The notes beneath the pieces are model-generated. The model saw only the letters and a program-made list of their open reading frames with translations. It was not told where the DNA came from and did no database searches. The position numbers were made by a program, and so were the translations under genes. 43,861 nucleotides of DNA from a virus. The stretch lies in the IMG/VR virus record IMGVR_UViG_3300050122_000023, positions 1 to 43,861 of that record; one strand, written 5' to 3'. Shown in pieces: positions 3,129 through 15,567 of the stretch; the stretch's first letter is position 1; each line of letters begins with the position of its first letter.

Positions 3129-4374
3129 TATTCTCGATCCGCCGCAAGAGGCAGCCGTCGAACGTGCACTAGCGTTCGACGGCTTTTGCTTTTATTTCGA
3201 GCCTCGAGTAGGAAAGACTCGATCGGCTCTCGAAGTCATCAATCGACGACTCGACGTACAATTTCTGATCATTGTCGCGCCGAAGGGTGTGATCAACGTC
3301 TGGCAAGCGGCCATTCATGCCGGTGAGCTACGCTCAGGCGTAATCGTCGAATTGATCAATTTCGAGTCGTTCAACTCGAAGAAAAATCGCAAGAAACACC
3401 GACAACAATCCGGTGATTCGATCACAATGGTCATTGTCGATGAAGCACATCGAATCAAGAAACGCAGCAATAAGCAATCGAAGGGTATTCGAACGTTAGT
3501 GCCGCATAGCCGTTATCGGCTGGCGCTGACGGCCACACCCTTGGACAAATCGATCGAGCAATGCTGGCCGATCTTTAATTTCATCGATCCCGAGATTTTC
3601 GGAAAGTACCCGGACTTCGAAAGTCGTTATCTGCGCATGGGCGGATATATGGGATACAAAGTTATTGGCTATAAGAACGAAGACGAATTCAAACGAATCT
3701 ATCATGAGCATTCAGCACATATCCGATTGACTGATGTTTCTCATCGTCGAATCAAAGTGAATCGAAAGATCGTGCGGCTGAAGATGAGCGACGAAGGTCG
3801 AACACATTACGATGAACTTGAAGAGAATTTAGTGACATCGAGAGGCCAGGTACGAGTGAGAGCTCCGCTCGCGATCACGCTATCAATGCGTCTACAACAA
3901 ATCACTGGAGGCTATTTATGCGATAAGAAGACACAGGTGTTGGTCGATGATACGAAACTAAAAGCCGTAGTCAATTTGGCTAAGGAGTCAATACCTTTCG
4001 TGGTGGTATGTCGTTATCGCCATGAAATGGATGAGATTGCTGAGCGGCTGAAGAAATTCAGCACATTGATCGTACGAGGTGGCGAACCGCTATTGAGTCC
4101 CCGCCCGAACGTAGATATAGTGATCATACAGACAACGGCCGGTATTGGAATCGACCTGTCTCAGGCAACGACGATAATCTTTTACTCATGGGATTATTCG
4201 TACATCAATTATGAGCAAATGAGGTTTCGCATTTTGAGTCGATCGCAAACGACGGCGCGATACATCTTTCTGATGATTGAGAATTCAATCGACGAAGTGA
4301 TTTATGACGCCGCTGTTCGCAAAAAGAAATTGTCCGCAGCAATCAACGAGTATTATAGGAGTCGACGTGGATAA
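3121..4374 (+). CDS. SNF2-like superfamily 2 DNA helicase
   Basis: The product has 417 residues. Motif I is FEPRVGKTRS (residues 27-36), motif II VDEAH (106-110), motif III ALTATPL (135-141), and the C-terminal motif VI-like segment is YEQMRFRILSRSQT. This is a minimal phage SNF2-type ATPase that would translocate on DNA during replication or recombination. No ATG exists near the start; the only reasonable start is TTG 3121, which overlaps the preceding stop, so expression probably depends on translational coupling. No Zn finger or accessory domain is seen. Confidence 0.85.
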   Translation: MRNILDPPQEAAVERALAFDGFCFYFEPRVGKTRSALEVINRRLDVQFLIIVAPKGVINVWQAAIHAGELRSGVIVELINFESFNSKKNRKKHRQQSGDSITMVIVDEAHRIKKRSNKQSKGIRTLVPHSRYRLALTATPLDKSIEQCWPIFNFIDPEIFGKYPDFESRYLRMGGYMGYKVIGYKNEDEFKRIYHEHSAHIRLTDVSHRRIKVNRKIVRLKMSDEGRTHYDELEENLVTSRGQVRVRAPLAITLSMRLQQITGGYLCDKKTQVLVDDTKLKAVVNLAKESIPFVVVCRYRHEMDEIAERLKKFSTLIVRGGEPLLSPRPNVDIVIIQTTAGIGIDLSQATTIIFYSWDYSYINYEQMRFRILSRSQTTARYIFLMIENSIDEVIYDAAVRKKKLSAAINEYYRSRRG

Positions 4375-10625: not shown

Positions 10626-11531
10626 ATGGGTGGTGGTACATTTGATCCGGGAAAGTATCGTTCGTACGCGAGTACGACGGTTGGCAAGACCGATGCCGAG
10701 GTTCTTACATCGAAGCATATAAAGGCCGCATTGAATCCGAAGGGCGTCAAGATTCGAGAGTCACGAGACAGCGACGACAATCCGAAAGCGACGCCGATTG
10801 CAATCTTCACTGATGTGACGGGCAGCATGGGTTCTCTAGCGGCGTTGATTGCTCGCAGTGGGCTTGGCGTGCTGTTCGAATCGATTCTTGATCGCAAGCC
10901 AGTGACGAATCCTCATCTGATGTTCGGCGCGATCGGAGACGTAAGCTACGATCAGTCGCCATTGCAAGTAAGCCAATTTGAGGCGGACAATCGCATCGTC
11001 GAACAGTTGACGGAAACGTATATCGAAGGTGGTGGCGGCGGCAATGGTTGGGAGAGCTATGAATTGCCGTGGTACTTCGCGGCCTTTCACACTGAACATG
11101 ACTCGCTCATCAAGCGCGGCAAGCGGGGATATCTGTTCACAGTGGGGGATGAGCCGATCGGTCCAGGACTTCGAAAAGATCAGATTGTTCGATTCCTCGA
11201 TGATGGTGCCGAACGTGATTTCACGACAGCCGAATGTTTGGAGGCCGCACAGCGCAAGTACGACGTGTACCACATCGTCATTAAACAAGGTTATGCCGGT
11301 CACAATATGGACGGTGTCCTCAATACGTGGAAACCCCTGCTCAAGCAACATGTGATCGTGCTAGATGATTACACGAAGCTGGCCGAAACGATCGTATCGA
11401 CGATCGAGATAGCCGAAGGCACTGACGCTCACACGTCAACGGCTGGCTGGGGTGCCGGTGCTGGCGTCGTGCTTGAAGCCGTCAAACACTTGCCGAAGGG
11501 TCACGCGCCGAAGATGCTGGGAGCGCCATAA
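10626..11531 (+). CDS. von Willebrand factor A (vWA) domain protein
   Basis: The protein has 301 residues. The vWA core begins near residue 56, with the metal-site motif FTDVTGSMG (61-69). A Gly-rich segment (YIEGGGGGNGWESYELPWYF) and the strand YLFTVGDEPIG follow, and the C-terminus ends in a Gly/Ala-rich tail. vWA domains bind ligands through Mg2+ and often serve as assembly platforms. It stands directly before tRNA-Gln and 2.2 kb before the TROVE protein, which has its own vWA domain, so the two may belong to one RNA-related module (inference). The start has AAGGAG nine bases upstream. Confidence 0.85.
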   Translation: MGGGTFDPGKYRSYASTTVGKTDAEVLTSKHIKAALNPKGVKIRESRDSDDNPKATPIAIFTDVTGSMGSLAALIARSGLGVLFESILDRKPVTNPHLMFGAIGDVSYDQSPLQVSQFEADNRIVEQLTETYIEGGGGGNGWESYELPWYFAAFHTEHDSLIKRGKRGYLFTVGDEPIGPGLRKDQIVRFLDDGAERDFTTAECLEAAQRKYDVYHIVIKQGYAGHNMDGVLNTWKPLLKQHVIVLDDYTKLAETIVSTIEIAEGTDAHTSTAGWGAGAGVVLEAVKHLPKGHAPKMLGAP

Positions 11532-11628: not shown

Positions 11629-12039
11629 ATGGATTTACGTGGACTTGTTGAAGTGACAGAAGTTGATCAGCGTGAACTGGCGAAAGCGGCATATGCTATG
11701 AGTCGTCCTCAAGGAATGGGCTTTTTGCATTTCACTGAAGGCGAGCTTGATCAAGCCACGCTGAATGCGATCATAGAACAAGCTGACAAATTTCGCGGCG
11801 GTTGTATCGATCTCGATTACGTCCGTGGCCGCTCTTGTAAGTTTCATGTGCGTTTGCATGATGGTAAGCGCTATGTATCGATCAACTGGTACGATCACAG
11901 TGTGGAAGAGATGAGTCAATTACTTCGAGATTGCAAAGTGCCAGATGTCGAGGCTCGTATTGCCAAAGCAATCAAAGGTAATACTGAGCGTCAGCTCGAG
12001 TATGACGAAGAAAATCGAAGAGAAAGGGTATCACGATGA
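11629..12039 (+). CDS. Hypothetical phage protein, 136 aa
   Basis: ATG 11629 follows AAGGAGAAGACG, right after the tRNA. The sequence has a helical N-terminal part, a motif GMGFLHFTEGELDQATLNAI, and a beta-hairpin with conserved-looking residues (YVRGRSCKFHVR, then WYDHS). I recall similar phage proteins without an assigned function. The stop overlaps the adenylosuccinate synthetase-like gene. Confidence 0.65.
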   Translation: MDLRGLVEVTEVDQRELAKAAYAMSRPQGMGFLHFTEGELDQATLNAIIEQADKFRGGCIDLDYVRGRSCKFHVRLHDGKRYVSINWYDHSVEEMSQLLRDCKVPDVEARIAKAIKGNTERQLEYDEENRRERVSR

Positions 12040-13100
12040 AAGCACGCGCCGTCATTGGAGCGAACTTCGGAGACGAAGGCAAAGGTCTAATCACAGACTA
12101 CTTATGCGCGCAAGGCGCTGGTGTGGTCGTGCGCTTCAATGGCGGCGCGCAGGCAGGGCACACGGTCGTCGAACCTGACGGTCATCGACATGTGTTCGGT
12201 CATGTCGGCTCTGGTACTTTTTTGAATGTGCCGACATTTCTGTCCCAATTTTTCATCTGCAATCCGATTTTGTTGATACGTGAGCTGGTGACATTGAACA
12301 AAATGAGGATCGAACCGTCGATCTTCGCTCATCCGGATTGCTTAGTCACGACGTTCGCGGACATGATGATCAATCAGCGCAAAGAAAATAAGCGCGGCGA
12401 TAAGCGGCACGGCTCTTGCGGCGTAGGCGTTCACGAAACGATTCAGCGCTCAGCCGTCAGCGAGTTGAAAATCACGATGAGTGATTTGTGGAATCGGTCG
12501 AATTCGATCGAATCGAAGTTATCCCAAATTTGTGATAAGTATGCGTCGTTTCGGTCAGGCTCAAAAATCGATGAGCCCGTCATGGCTCAGAATTTTCTGA
12601 AAGCGTGCTGGATCATGGCCGAAGCCGTCAGTCCGGCTGGCATTGGTCAATGCACTGATCCGGTGTTTGAGGGCGCTCAAGGACTATTACTTGATCAGGA
12701 TCGTAAAGAATTTTGGCCACATGTGACGCACTCGAACACTGGAATGAAGAACGTTCGGCTGCTGTGCGCTCAAGCTGGAATCACAGAGATCGAAACGTAT
12801 TATGTGTCTCGCACGTATTTGACTCGTCACGGCGCAGGACCATTGCCGGACGAAGACGACACGATGGACTATGAAGATGACACGAATCGCGTACACCCAT
12901 ATCAGGGTCGGCTGCGCTTCGCTGCGCTTGATAGTGACGTGCGTTCCCGATGCACCGCCGATCATGGCGATGATGACTACAAGTTCGTACTAACGCATTG
13001 TGATCAGTTCGCACCAGATCGGACAGCCGATTTGTACAGCTACGGGCCGACACGCAAGGATGTGCGCGGCTGGCCGAATAGCAAAGTGGCGGCTAAATAA
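12036..13100 (+). CDS. Adenylosuccinate synthetase family protein (phage PurA-like)
   Basis: At 354 residues it is about 80 shorter than bacterial PurA (430). Seen: the P-loop GANFGDEGKG (8-17) with the catalytic-base Asp at 13, AGHT (40-43), FEGAQGLLLDQD, the segment TRHGAGPLP, GRLRF where PurA has the substrate Arg loop, LTHCD in place of TKxD for guanine, and a final SYGPTRKD. PurA joins IMP and Asp using GTP. The phage branch PurZ, used to make diaminopurine DNA, typically replaces the Asp of GDEGKG with Ser; this protein keeps Asp. The second signature is GGAQAGHT instead of GGHNAGHT. It may boost dATP supply or act on a different purine; DatZ and MazZ partners are not in this window. 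Confidence 0.85.
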   Translation: MKARAVIGANFGDEGKGLITDYLCAQGAGVVVRFNGGAQAGHTVVEPDGHRHVFGHVGSGTFLNVPTFLSQFFICNPILLIRELVTLNKMRIEPSIFAHPDCLVTTFADMMINQRKENKRGDKRHGSCGVGVHETIQRSAVSELKITMSDLWNRSNSIESKLSQICDKYASFRSGSKIDEPVMAQNFLKACWIMAEAVSPAGIGQCTDPVFEGAQGLLLDQDRKEFWPHVTHSNTGMKNVRLLCAQAGITEIETYYVSRTYLTRHGAGPLPDEDDTMDYEDDTNRVHPYQGRLRFAALDSDVRSRCTADHGDDDYKFVLTHCDQFAPDRTADLYSYGPTRKDVRGWPNSKVAAK

Positions 13101-13119: not shown

Positions 13120-13202
13120 GTTCGATGTTTAATATACATGTGCCTGGTAATAGATGAGAGTTACTTCAGCTATCATGAATGGCGAAAGCCAAAACTCTTG
13201 TC
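13120..13202 (+). ncRNA. Array unit 0 (degenerate core, GAAA hairpin head)
   Basis: The core is poorly conserved except CCTGGTAATA before the stem. The stem pairs 13153-13160 with 13195-13202 (8 of 8, two wobbles). TTACTTC is at 13161-13167. The head has a TTC...GAA closure and a GGC-GAAA-GCC tetraloop hairpin (13181-13190). Confidence 0.6.
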
Positions 13203-13274
13203 AATTGTTCCGGCTCGATTTTGTCCTTGGTGTATGGCGTCGGTTACTTCTTTAGATGAAACTATACCGTCGTC
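13203..13274 (+). ncRNA. Array unit 1 (minimal head)
   Basis: A full core starts at AATTGTTCC (13203). The stem pairs 13236-13243 with 13267-13274 (7 of 8, one T-T mismatch). TTACTTC is at 13244-13250. The head is only 16 bases and can close as TTC-TTTAGAT-GAA, the same small hairpin seen in unit 3. An alternative pairing, GGTGTA with TATACC, also exists. Confidence 0.65.
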
Positions 13275-13414
13275 GATTGTTCCAGGAAAGTTTCTGTGTC
13301 TGGTGCAAATAGCGGATACTTCAGGTGTAGTTCAATGGTAGAACATGTCAATTCGTTGACAGACGTCGGTTCGATTCCGATCCCGCGAACCGCCGAAAGG
13401 CATACGCCGCTGTT
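13275..13414 (+). ncRNA. Array unit 2 (tRNA-like head)
   Basis: The stem pairs 13308-13315 with 13407-13414 (8 of 8). ATACTTC is at 13316-13322. The head contains a D-type arm GTTC/GAAC with loop AATGGTA, an anticodon-type arm TGTCA/TGACA (13346-13361) with only six loop bases (ATTCGT), a T-type arm GTCGG/CCGAT with loop TTCGATT, and a GCC-GAAA-GGC hairpin. The anticodon loop is not decodable, so it is a mimic rather than a tRNA. Confidence 0.7.
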
Positions 13415-13538
13415 GATGGTTCCGACTAGATTTTGTGTGTGTGGTTGATGTGCTTGGTGAAAGGTGACAGCTACTTCGCCGGATGAAACTTGACTAGCAA
13501 TAGTCGAGCTGGCAGTTCGAATCTGCTATTCTGTCATC
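13415..13538 (+). ncRNA. Array unit 3 (T-arm head, extended core)
   Basis: The core GATGGTTCCGACTAGATTTT is followed by about 15 extra bases. The stem pairs 13463-13470 with 13531-13538 (8 of 8). CTACTTC is at 13471-13477. The head has TTC-GCCGGAT-GAA, a GACTA-GCAA-TAGTC tetraloop hairpin (13492-13505) and a canonical T arm GGCAG/CTGCT with loop TTCGAAT (13511-13527). Confidence 0.7.
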
Positions 13539-13679
13539 GATTGTTCCGGCTTGATTTTGTGGGTGGTGTAGATAACGGTTACTTCCCTTTTAAGGCGTTG
13601 GTCGTTGGTTCAAATCCAACCGTCTCAGCCAAAATCGAGACGTAGCTCAGCCTGGTAGAGCAGCGTTGTCACCGTCATC
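13539..13679 (+). ncRNA. Array unit 4 (head is a permuted tRNA)
   Basis: The core GATTGTTCCGGCTTGATTTT is intact. The stem pairs 13571-13578 with 13672-13679 (7 of 8). TTACTTC is at 13579-13585. The head from 13587 to 13667 is the permuted tRNA-Lys candidate, inserted into the unit through its anticodon loop. A truncated further core, GATTATTCC, follows at 13680-13688. Confidence 0.7.
13587..13667 (+). tRNA. Candidate circularly permuted tRNA-Lys (UUU)
   Basis: The 3' half comes first: loop CTTTTAA (anticodon TTT at 13589-13591), GGCGT, variable TGGTC, T arm GTTGG-TTCAAAT-CCAAC, acceptor strand CGTCTCA, G, then CCA at 13629-13631. Four bases later the 5' half starts: CGAGACG (13636-13642), TA, D arm GCTC-AGCCTGGTA-GAGC, A, then GCGTT (13663-13667). 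Rejoined, all four stems form: acceptor 6 pairs plus a C-A at the top, D 4, anticodon 5 (three wobbles), T 5. The break falls between positions 31 and 32. Permuted tRNA genes with this order are known from some algae and archaea. Here it could be processed to a tRNA or act only as a mimic on the array RNA. Confidence 0.55.
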
Positions 13680-13697
13680 GATTATTCCCCCGTCAAG

Positions 13698-13717
13698 CCT
13701 CCGTTTTATAAAGGAGG
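13698..13717 (+). promoter_or_regulatory. Hairpin covering the TROVE ribosome-binding site
   Basis: CCTCC (13698-13702) pairs with GGAGG (13713-13717), the Shine-Dalgarno sequence, and the loop can extend the stem through TTT/AAA. This would hide the site before ATG 13723. Placed between the RNA array and the TROVE gene, it suggests translational control, possibly by the protein itself or by folding of the upstream array. Confidence 0.55.
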
Positions 13718-13722
13718 ATATG

Positions 13723-15111
13723 ATGAAGACGAATGTGAAGACTCAAAGCAAACTTCGTACTCACGAAGGTGCGCCATCGCCGAGCGTCAGTGCAACGAAA
13801 GAATTACGTCGTGCCGTGATGTCGTGCATGTTGTTCGAAAAGCAATTTTACGAAAGCGGCGAAGACAGCTCAAAGCGTATTGCCTCGCTAGTCGCTCAAG
13901 TATCGTTCGAAGACGCCGCTCAATGTGCGATCGACGCACGCGAAAAGTTCAAGCTGCGACATGTGCCGTTGTTCATCGTGCGTGAGCTGCTGCGTCGTCC
14001 TCAAGGGCGCAAGATGGGTGATTTGATTCATCGGATCATTCAGCGGCCGGATGAGTTGGGCGAGCTGCTGTCCCTGTACTGGAAGGATCAGCCGAACGCA
14101 CCCCTCGCGACTCAGTTGAAGATTGGGTTGGCGCGAGCCATCAAGAAATTCAACGAGTACAGCTTGGCGAAGCACGACGGTGAGGGCATATCAGTACGTG
14201 ACGTGCTGTTCCTGGTTCATGCTCGACCGAAATTCAACACGAACGGTGAAGCCCCGCCAGCTTGGAAGATCGATGCTATCGATAAACCAGGTTACAAGCG
14301 GGGTCAAGTATTGCGTCATGCGCCGTCGCTGTTTGATCGTATCGCGAATCAAACGATGGTGATCCCAGACACTTGGGAAACTCAATTGTCGGCGGGCGCT
14401 GATAAGAAAGAAACGTTCACTCGACTGTTGACTGAAAACAAGTTGGGCGGCATGGCTCTCTTGCGCAATTTACGCAACATGACTCAAGCTGGCGTATCGA
14501 CTGACTTGATCAAGCGCGGCATCGAGACGATGAAGACCGATCGCATCTTGCCGTTTCGATTTCTGTCGGCTGCGAAGTATGGCCCGCAATTCGAGCCGTT
14601 TCTCGAAAGTGCGATGTTTCGCTGTCTCGGTGAACAGCCGAGACTCGAAGGTCGTACGGCACTGTTGGTCGATCACTCGATGTCAATGAACAGTCCAGTG
14701 TCAGCTAAGAGTGAAATCACTCGATTCGATGCGGCTGCGGCTTTGGCAATGATGCTGCGCGAAATCAGCTCTCGATGTCGAGTATTCACGTTCTCGACGG
14801 TCTGCGATGAAATTGCACCGCGTCGAGGCTTCGCAATTAATGCCGCATTGAATGCTGTTCGTCAGCCTCATCACACGTTGCTGGGAGCGGCGGTGAAGCA
14901 CGTCTACTCAGTATTTCCTGAGTGCACGCGAATCATCGTCGTGACCGATGAGCAGAGCGCCGATCGTCCGCCACATCCGCAAGGCGCTGGCTACGTGATC
15001 AATGTCGCCGGTGCAAAGAACGGCATCGCATACGGTCCTTGGGTGTCGATCGACGGCTGGAGCGAAGCGATCATCGATTACATCCAAGAATACGAGCAAG
15101 AAGCGGCGTAG
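13723..15111 (+). CDS. TROVE/Ro60-like RNA-binding protein with vWA domain
   Basis: The 462-residue product has an N-terminal TROVE domain of helical repeats (about 25-290; for example HVPLFIVRELLRRPQGRK and LGGMALLRNLRNM). A C-terminal vWA domain has the metal-site motif LLVDHSMSMN (314-323). This is the domain order of Ro60 and bacterial Rsr. Ro proteins form a ring that binds ends of misfolded RNA in its hole and Y RNAs on its outside; in bacteria the Y-like RNA (YrlA) is encoded next door. I chose ATG 13723 rather than 13720 because it lies five bases from AAGGAGG. The array of structured RNAs directly upstream is the natural ligand candidate. Confidence 0.9.
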   Translation: MKTNVKTQSKLRTHEGAPSPSVSATKELRRAVMSCMLFEKQFYESGEDSSKRIASLVAQVSFEDAAQCAIDAREKFKLRHVPLFIVRELLRRPQGRKMGDLIHRIIQRPDELGELLSLYWKDQPNAPLATQLKIGLARAIKKFNEYSLAKHDGEGISVRDVLFLVHARPKFNTNGEAPPAWKIDAIDKPGYKRGQVLRHAPSLFDRIANQTMVIPDTWETQLSAGADKKETFTRLLTENKLGGMALLRNLRNMTQAGVSTDLIKRGIETMKTDRILPFRFLSAAKYGPQFEPFLESAMFRCLGEQPRLEGRTALLVDHSMSMNSPVSAKSEITRFDAAAALAMMLREISSRCRVFTFSTVCDEIAPRRGFAINAALNAVRQPHHTLLGAAVKHVYSVFPECTRIIVVTDEQSADRPPHPQGAGYVINVAGAKNGIAYGPWVSIDGWSEAIIDYIQEYEQEAA

Positions 15112-15118
15112 AGTTCCG

Positions 15119-15187
15119 GCCCGCTCACTCTGATGCGAAGCCAGCCCTGGTAGCTGGAACGACGGGATATTCCCGGAGTGAGCGGGC
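15119..15187 (+). ncRNA. Compact structured RNA with 12-bp closing stem
   Basis: GCCCGCTCACTC (15119-15130) is perfectly complementary to GAGTGAGCGGGC (15176-15187). Inside are two more hairpins: CCAGC-CCTGGTA-GCTGG, whose loop looks like a tRNA D loop, and CGGGA-TAT-TCCCG. The result is a three-way junction of 69 bases. No U-run follows, so it is not a standard terminator. It starts just after GTTCCGG, a string also found in the core of the upstream array. It sits between the TROVE gene and the next gene and is another candidate Ro-bound RNA or a stability element. Confidence 0.7.
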
Positions 15188-15207
15188 AGGGGCATAAGGA
15201 GAATATG

Positions 15208-15567
15208 ATGGGATTCAGAAGCAACACAGTTCAAGTTGAGCGTGCGTTGTTCAATACGCAGATGTTCAATTTCTTGGCACTTGAGGTTTTGGCTGTTTCG
15301 ATTTTCGTAGGTGTGACGTTTCAGTCGTTAGGCTGGGGCTTAGTTGCATTTCTAGTTTTGATGATCGGCATTTGGCGTCAGCCGTTTCAATCGTTGATTG
15401 CGATTTTGTTCACGCTGAGCTGGAGCGTCATTGCTGGCTGGATCGGCTATACACTATCGCATCACGACGGCTTCTCGTGCGGCGTGGCGGCTATTGCAGG
15501 ACTTATGATCGCGGCGGGCGTACATACAGCGGCTATTCAGTGGCAGAAGGATTTTATCAGTGAGTGA
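15208..15567 (+). CDS. Membrane protein, 119 aa
   Basis: ATG 15208 lies six bases after AAGGAG (a second ATG at 15205 is too close). There are about four hydrophobic segments (for example FLALEVLAVSIFVGVTF and GLVAFLVLMIGIW), with basic residues between them. No family recognised. The stop overlaps the GTG start of the DUF3310 gene. Confidence 0.7.
   Translation: MGFRSNTVQVERALFNTQMFNFLALEVLAVSIFVGVTFQSLGWGLVAFLVLMIGIWRQPFQSLIAILFTLSWSVIAGWIGYTLSHHDGFSCGVAAIAGLMIAAGVHTAAIQWQKDFISE

What the first reader, a model, noticed from the sequence alone, without database searches (positions are those of the whole stretch)
15119..15187. Second structured RNA downstream of the TROVE gene
A perfect 12-bp stem encloses two 5-bp hairpins, one with a D-loop-like sequence (CCTGGTA). 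12 bp equals a stacked acceptor plus T stem of tRNA. It is not a terminator (no U-run) and sits in the same operon as the TROVE gene. It may be a single-copy Y-like RNA, or a processing or stability element.
Basis: partly seen in the sequence, partly recalled or inferred. Interest (0 to 1): 0.65.

Follow-up and report, generated by a model that had tools for sequence, protein, structure and literature searches.

The report
mRNA stem element after TROVE gene
Right after a phage gene for a Ro60-like RNA-binding (TROVE) protein the messenger RNA folds into a very stable long-stemmed structure; it is real but is not one of the Y RNAs that the TROVE protein family binds, and most likely it is an ordinary cut-or-protect signal between two neighbouring genes.

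Summary
The structure is real. A perfect 12-bp stem (15119-15130/15176-15187) encloses two 5-bp hairpins. It fills the 96-nt gap between the TROVE stop codon and the ribosome-binding site of the next gene. One of 20,000 shuffles of that gap gave such a stem. The only syntenic sister phage found (L014) has a 13-bp-stem, 60-nt element at the same place with little sequence in common. In that sense the structure is conserved, but with one relative covariation cannot be tested.

The Y-RNA reading fails. A covariance model built from relatives finds 325 Y-like RNAs in 182 TROVE loci and four upstream of this TROVE gene, but scores 15119-15187 at 1.2 bits, which is chance. There is no tRNA, YrlA, ribozyme or terminator match. 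The "D-loop" CCTGGTA occurs eight times in the window and no T-loop accompanies it.

Best reading: a cis-acting intercistronic processing or stability stem, possibly an RNase III substrate, separating TROVE from the downstream gene. The biochemistry is untested. Ordinary kind of element, modest interest; the upstream Y-RNA array is more interesting.

The parts
15119..15130 (+). 5' arm of the 12-bp stem P1 (GCCCGCTCACTC)
15176..15187 (+). 3' arm of P1 (GAGTGAGCGGGC)
15113..15117 (+). 5' arm of an outer 5-bp helix (GTTCC), separated from P1 by the mismatch G15118.A15188
   Evidence: pair probability 0.95 or more
15189..15193 (+). 3' arm of the outer helix (GGGGC)
15141..15157 (+). hairpin 1, CCAGC-CCTGGTA-GCTGG (the 'D-loop-like' one)
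15163..15175 (+). hairpin 2, CGGGA-TAT-TCCCG, directly abutting the 3' arm of P1
13723..15111 (+). TROVE/VWA-domain (Ro60/Rsr-like) protein gene just upstream
   Evidence: PF05731 7e-11, phrog_850 5e-35
15196..15201 (+). Shine-Dalgarno AAGGAG of the next gene, 3 nt after the outer helix
   Evidence: sequence
15208..15567 (+). next gene, 119-aa protein of unknown function (weak match phrog_15014)
   Evidence: no homologue beyond the identical contig

Best explanation
15113-15193 is a cis-acting structured intercistronic element of the phage mRNA. Transcribed with the TROVE gene, it folds into a long GC-rich helix: 17 pairs with one mismatch, extendable to about 22 by stacking of hairpin 2. It separates the TROVE cistron from the next one. 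Most likely it acts as a processing or stability signal. Either RNase III or another ribonuclease cuts it, or it blocks 3'-to-5' exonucleases, so that the TROVE message gets a protected 3' end and the next gene, whose Shine-Dalgarno starts 3 nt after the helix, gets its own 5' end. Shown here: the structure, its position, and an equivalent structure in the syntenic sister phage. Inferred: transcription in one operon. Untested: cleavage, the enzyme, and the effect on expression. The sequence inside the stem appears to matter less than the stem itself.
For: Stable fold, z -5.0, P1 pairs at 0.99 or more; 1 of 20,000 shuffles of the gap has such a stem. It occupies the gap between a stop codon and the next Shine-Dalgarno and is not terminator-like. 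The syntenic sister L014 (capsid 84%, sheath 68%, TROVE 62% identity) has a 13-pair stem with a 34-nt interior 8 nt after its TROVE stop, again followed by a Shine-Dalgarno and ATG, although the downstream gene and the stem sequence differ. In both genomes it is the only long non-coding stem of this open-interior kind next to that operon. Stems this strong starting within 15 nt of a stop follow only 3-4 of 750-790 other genes. RNase III is known to cut lambda, T7 and T3 phage transcripts (PMC5371410).
Against: No transcript data. Only one diverged relative shares the element; other TROVE relatives at 54-65% identity have a small HTH gene or other sequence there. Twelve pairs plus a mismatch is on the short side for RNase III unless the stacked hairpin counts. 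The stem could serve a quite different purpose.
Confidence: 0.55

Rival explanations
1. It is an independent small RNA that works like a Y RNA: excised from the operon transcript and bound by the TROVE protein as tether or gate, perhaps through a fold different from the Y-like RNAs upstream.
For: It sits next to TROVE, is compact (69-81 nt) and stable. Some relatives carry Y-like RNAs downstream of TROVE (for example L036 and L106).
Against: It lacks the Y-RNA features: 1.2 bits with the Y-like model, while four upstream copies score 20.7-44.4. The system already has an upstream array. The perfect helix lacks the conserved bulged strands GGYGUAGA and UCGNUUGUUCC.
Confidence: 0.12
2. It is a feedback site: TROVE protein binds this structure in its own mRNA and thereby alters the stability or translation of TROVE or of the next gene.
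For: Adjacent to the gene of an RNA-binding protein; the sister phage has a stem at the same place.
Against: No shared sequence or recognisable binding motif between the two elements; no binding data.
Confidence: 0.1
3. It is a transcription pause, attenuator or weak terminator between TROVE and the downstream genes.
For: GC-rich stem directly after a stop codon; in L014 the stem is followed by TTTGTT.
Against: In the window the stem is followed by AGGGGCATAAGGAG, with no U-run, and the terminator scan does not list it; the interior is large and branched.
Confidence: 0.08
4. It has no RNA function: a chance inverted repeat, a DNA-level inverted repeat, or a relic of an insertion.
For: 0.13 perfect stems of 12 bp or more are expected per window, and many windows are read. 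Both strands fold equally well. Close TROVE relatives other than L014 lack it.
Against: 1 in 20,000 for the gap itself; added outer helix and two hairpins inside; similar element at the same place in the only syntenic sister. No repeat copies in the window, and blastn finds nothing in phages and only chance-level pieces in plasmids.
Confidence: 0.11

Closest known systems
RNase III processing signals of phage polycistronic mRNAs (T7 early RNAs, R1.1; lambda, T3)
   Same: Long stem between cistrons in a phage transcript, similar size; R1.1 is a ~60-nt substrate (PMC4858673; PMC5371410)
   Different: Cleavage not shown; P1 is 12 bp plus 5 across a mismatch; a branched interior instead of one internal loop
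Y RNAs (YrlA of Rfam; phage Y-like RNAs beside TROVE genes)
   Same: Neighbourhood of a TROVE/Ro60 gene; a closing stem with hairpins inside
   Different: No Y motif: 1.2 bits with the Y-like model; no YrlA match
Intrinsic terminators
   Same: GC-rich stem directly after a stop codon
   Different: Large branched interior (45 nt), no U-run, Shine-Dalgarno follows immediately
REP-like 3' mRNA stabilisers of bacterial operons (from own knowledge)
   Same: Intercistronic stem that could block 3'-to-5' exonucleases
   Different: Single copy, no repeat family found

Membership tests
Y RNA (YrlA / phage Y-like RNA) | Conserved closing-stem motif GGYGUAGA ... UCGNUUGUUCC, tested with covariance model R1 | tested here: not met
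   1.2 bits, E about 1, against 20.7-44.4 bits for four copies upstream
Y RNA (YrlA / phage Y-like RNA) | Match to Rfam YrlA (RF02553) | tested here: not met
   Only 13596-13666 matches, 41.1 bits, below the threshold of 69; nothing at the element
Y RNA (YrlA / phage Y-like RNA) | Bound by the TROVE/Ro60 protein | not testable with these tools
   Needs a gel shift or co-purification
tRNA-like domain | D-arm and T-arm with their conserved loops; ARAGORN or Rfam tRNA match | tested here: not met
   No match; no T-loop; CCTGGTA occurs 8 times in the window
Intrinsic terminator | GC-rich stem with short loop followed by a U-run | tested here: not met
   Not in the terminator scan; followed by AGGGGCATAAGG
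RNase III-type intercistronic processing signal | Extended double helix between two cistrons | tested here: met
   12 + 5 pairs between the TROVE stop and the next Shine-Dalgarno
RNase III-type intercistronic processing signal | Cleavage by RNase III | not testable with these tools
   Needs in-vitro cleavage or end mapping
RNase III-type intercistronic processing signal | Pairing kept through compensatory changes in relatives | tested here: inconclusive
   One syntenic sister has an equivalent stem of different sequence; too few relatives to count covariation
Known Rfam RNA (ribozyme, riboswitch, tRNA and others) | Score at or above the family's gathering threshold | tested here: not met
   Only sub-threshold matches: five microRNA-precursor models and the lysM-Actino RNA, 10.6-16.1 bits, E 0.8-3.3

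The most novel reading that the evidence does not exclude
Phages that carry TROVE genes keep a second, structurally distinct RNA directly after the TROVE stop codon. Its long stem is conserved in position but not in sequence. It would be processed and used by the TROVE ribonucleoprotein, as substrate, regulator or decoy, alongside the upstream Y-like RNAs. Evidence: window and syntenic sister share it; stems start within 15 nt of the stop in 16/179 TROVE loci against 12/791 other genes, weakening to 5/88 against 3/330 with a non-coding filter and to 6 observed against about 2.3 expected for stems of 13 or more pairs (p 0.02).
Probability: 0.1. Interest if true: 0.55.

Novelty: new member of a known kind. 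Interest (0 to 1): 0.3.

Why it matters
If it is an intercistronic processing or stability stem it is an ordinary device that sets the expression of a phage TROVE gene apart from its neighbour. If TROVE bound it, it would be a non-Y RNA partner of a phage Ro60-like protein and a way to learn what phages use these proteins for, which to my knowledge is open. The check also settles that the recognisable Y RNAs of this system lie upstream, not here.

Tried and rejected
Y RNA: rejected by covariance model R1. tRNA or tRNA-like: no ARAGORN or Rfam match at the element. Ribozyme: CTGATG...GAA in the junction resembles a hammerhead core, but stem order and cleavage nucleotide do not fit and Rfam does not match. 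Terminator: no U-run.

Relic of the small HTH gene that follows TROVE in several 60% relatives: TATTCCCG is shared, but the frame and residues do not agree. Mobile repeat: no further copies in the window, nothing in phages, only chance-level pieces in plasmids.

A DNA pattern from the junction and hairpin 1 was searched in viral contigs. The first attempt had the gap length wrong. The corrected one found only the identical contig and three unrelated stretches that do not fold this way. Homologues of the downstream protein: only the identical contig. Capsid-based relatives, 25 records: none carries TROVE. A third TROVE scan gave no closer relatives.

A general excess of long stems after TROVE stops looked strong (p 4e-6), but five of the 16 cases are coding HTH genes and two are genomic or tandem repeats. 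I therefore do not rely on it.

Full report
The observation. The letters are as described. In 15119-15187 a perfect 12-bp stem (GCCCGCTCACTC/GAGTGAGCGGGC) encloses CCAGC-CCTGGTA-GCTGG (15141-15157) and CGGGA-TAT-TCCCG (15163-15175). Folded as RNA it gives -37.8 kcal/mol, z -5.0, with no shuffle as good. In larger contexts (15060-15260 and 15000-15320) the 12 pairs stay at probability 0.99 or more. Five further outer pairs, 15113-15117 with 15189-15193, form across a single G.A mismatch, so the element spans nearly the whole 96-nt gap between the TROVE stop (15111) and the ATG at 15208. The Shine-Dalgarno AAGGAG (15196-15201) begins three nucleotides after the helix ends. Hairpin 2 abuts the 3' strand of the main stem with no unpaired base, so a quasi-continuous helix of about 22 pairs is possible (inferred).

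Chance. The window has two perfect inverted repeats of 12 bp or more with loops up to 100 nt; 0.13 are expected with loops up to 60 nt. The other is a terminator-like hairpin at 3153-3184 followed by TTTTGC. For the gap alone, one of 20,000 dinucleotide shuffles has such a stem. The structure is therefore not a product of composition. Both strands fold, so the strand assignment rests on the direction of the operon.

Surroundings. The upstream gene is a TROVE/VWA protein (PF05731 7e-11; PF13519 8e-6, a fraction of a bit under its cut-off; phrog_850 5e-35). Downstream come a 119-aa orphan (phrog_15014, weak), a DUF3310 protein and ThyX; a 2-aminoadenylosuccinate synthetase-like gene (PurZ) lies upstream of the TROVE gene. 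The window belongs to a contractile-tailed phage (tail sheath). IMGVR_UViG_3300050119_000049 (71.9 kb) is identical over this region and gives no evolutionary information.

Is it a Y RNA? In relatives of this TROVE gene a conserved Y-like RNA recurs: 5' GGYGUAGA, a 7-9 bp stem, a loop beginning UUACUUC, and 3' UCGNUUGUUCC. I aligned 25 copies without using the window. Its helices are strongly supported by covariation: 94.5% of cells paired against 65% in shuffles, 94 cells with double changes against 26, covariation score 0.82 against 0.21. The model finds 198 copies in 90 relatives and 127 in 92 further ones. In the window it finds four copies, all upstream of TROVE, at 13143-13215, 13226-13287, 13457-13546 and 13566-13611. 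A fifth, tRNA-like copy between 13299 and 13423 is suggested by repeat D1 and by pairing of the motif strands, and Rfam tRNA matches at 13321-13389. The element at 15119-15187 gets 1.2 bits, E about 1. Rfam's YrlA matches only 13596-13666 (41.1 bits, below its threshold of 69). With permissive settings the element matches only generic microRNA-precursor hairpins and lysM-Actino at 10.6-16.1 bits, far below threshold. The D-loop likeness carries little weight: CCTGGTA occurs eight times in the window and there is no T-loop for it to meet. The Y-RNA reading is therefore not met; binding of the TROVE protein as such could not be tested.

Relatives. Three protein scans of viral contigs and one of genomes returned about 200 TROVE loci. 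Only one, L014 (contig IMGVR_UViG_3300047496_000057), is a true sister: its structural genes are syntenic (capsid 84%, sheath 68%, TROVE 62% identity), and it was the only one of 11 TROVE relatives tested with a related capsid. Eight nucleotides after its TROVE stop it has a 13-pair stem with a 34-nt interior (L014:3678-3737, z -4.1), followed by AAGGAAC and the start of the next gene. The downstream gene is a different one and the stem sequences are different. Stems of that strength starting within 15 nt of a stop follow only 3-4 of 750-790 other genes, so an accidental counterpart in the one sister would be about a 0.5% event. I take this as moderate support for a kept structure; it is not a covariation proof. 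The other TROVE relatives at 54-65% identity whose downstream sequence was read mostly carry a small HTH gene or other sequence at that place.

A wider pattern? Taken over 179 distinct TROVE loci, 16 have a stem of 10 or more pairs starting within 15 nt of the stop, against 12 of 791 other genes. Inspection shows that five of the 16 are coding HTH genes and that two are genomic or tandem repeats. With a non-coding filter it is 5/88 against 3/330 (p 0.012). For stems of 13 or more pairs in the whole downstream gap it is 6 hits against about 2.3 expected (p 0.02). The loci are related to one another, so these p values are optimistic. A TROVE-linked class of stems is possible but not established.

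Mechanism. The most economical reading is a cis-acting intercistronic stem: a processing or stability signal between TROVE and its neighbour. RNase III cuts lambda, T7 and T3 transcripts (PMC5371410), and the standard T7 substrate R1.1 is of similar size (PMC4858673). Whether this element is cut or simply protects a 3' end is not known. The alternatives, a TROVE-bound small RNA, a feedback site, an attenuator, or no function, are given with their tests.

Verdict. Observation right, with the helix longer than noted; the Y-RNA interpretation is not supported, the processing or stability interpretation is the best remaining one. New example of a known kind, modest interest. The array of Y-like RNAs upstream and its covarying family is the more valuable object and is listed under things noticed.

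Noticed in passing
window 13143-13692; loci L004-L205: Tandem array of four to five Y-like RNAs directly upstream of TROVE, with and without a tRNA-like domain. A covariance model of the ~60-nt hairpin form finds 325 copies beside TROVE genes in 182 phage and bacterial loci, with strong covariation; Rfam's YrlA covers only one window copy, below threshold.
   Followed up: partly
window 13702-13725; L014, L018 and L020 just before the TROVE start: A small hairpin (GCCTC...GAGG; in the window CCTCC...GGAGG) pairs with the TROVE Shine-Dalgarno right after the Y array in this sub-clade: possible translational control. Over all loci the excess is weak.
   Followed up: partly
window 13711-13725 and 15196-15210: TROVE and the next gene have nearly identical initiation regions, AAGGAGGATATGATG and AAGGAGAATATGATG (14 of 15 alike).
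   Followed up: no
L016, L017, L018, L020, L097, L099 directly after the TROVE stop: A small HTH (XRE-like) reading frame overlaps or follows the end of TROVE in several ~60% relatives; HTH-like frames also follow TROVE in Asticcacaulis loci. Possible regulator of the TROVE/Y operon.
   Followed up: no
window 12036-13100: PurZ-like 2-aminoadenylosuccinate synthetase gene: the phage may carry 2-aminoadenine DNA.
   Followed up: no
window 10626-11531: 301-aa protein without a Pfam match that recurs beside PurZ in other TROVE phages (L048 59%, L092 39%, L083/L030/L025 34%): a PurZ-TROVE neighbourhood shared by otherwise different phages.
   Followed up: no
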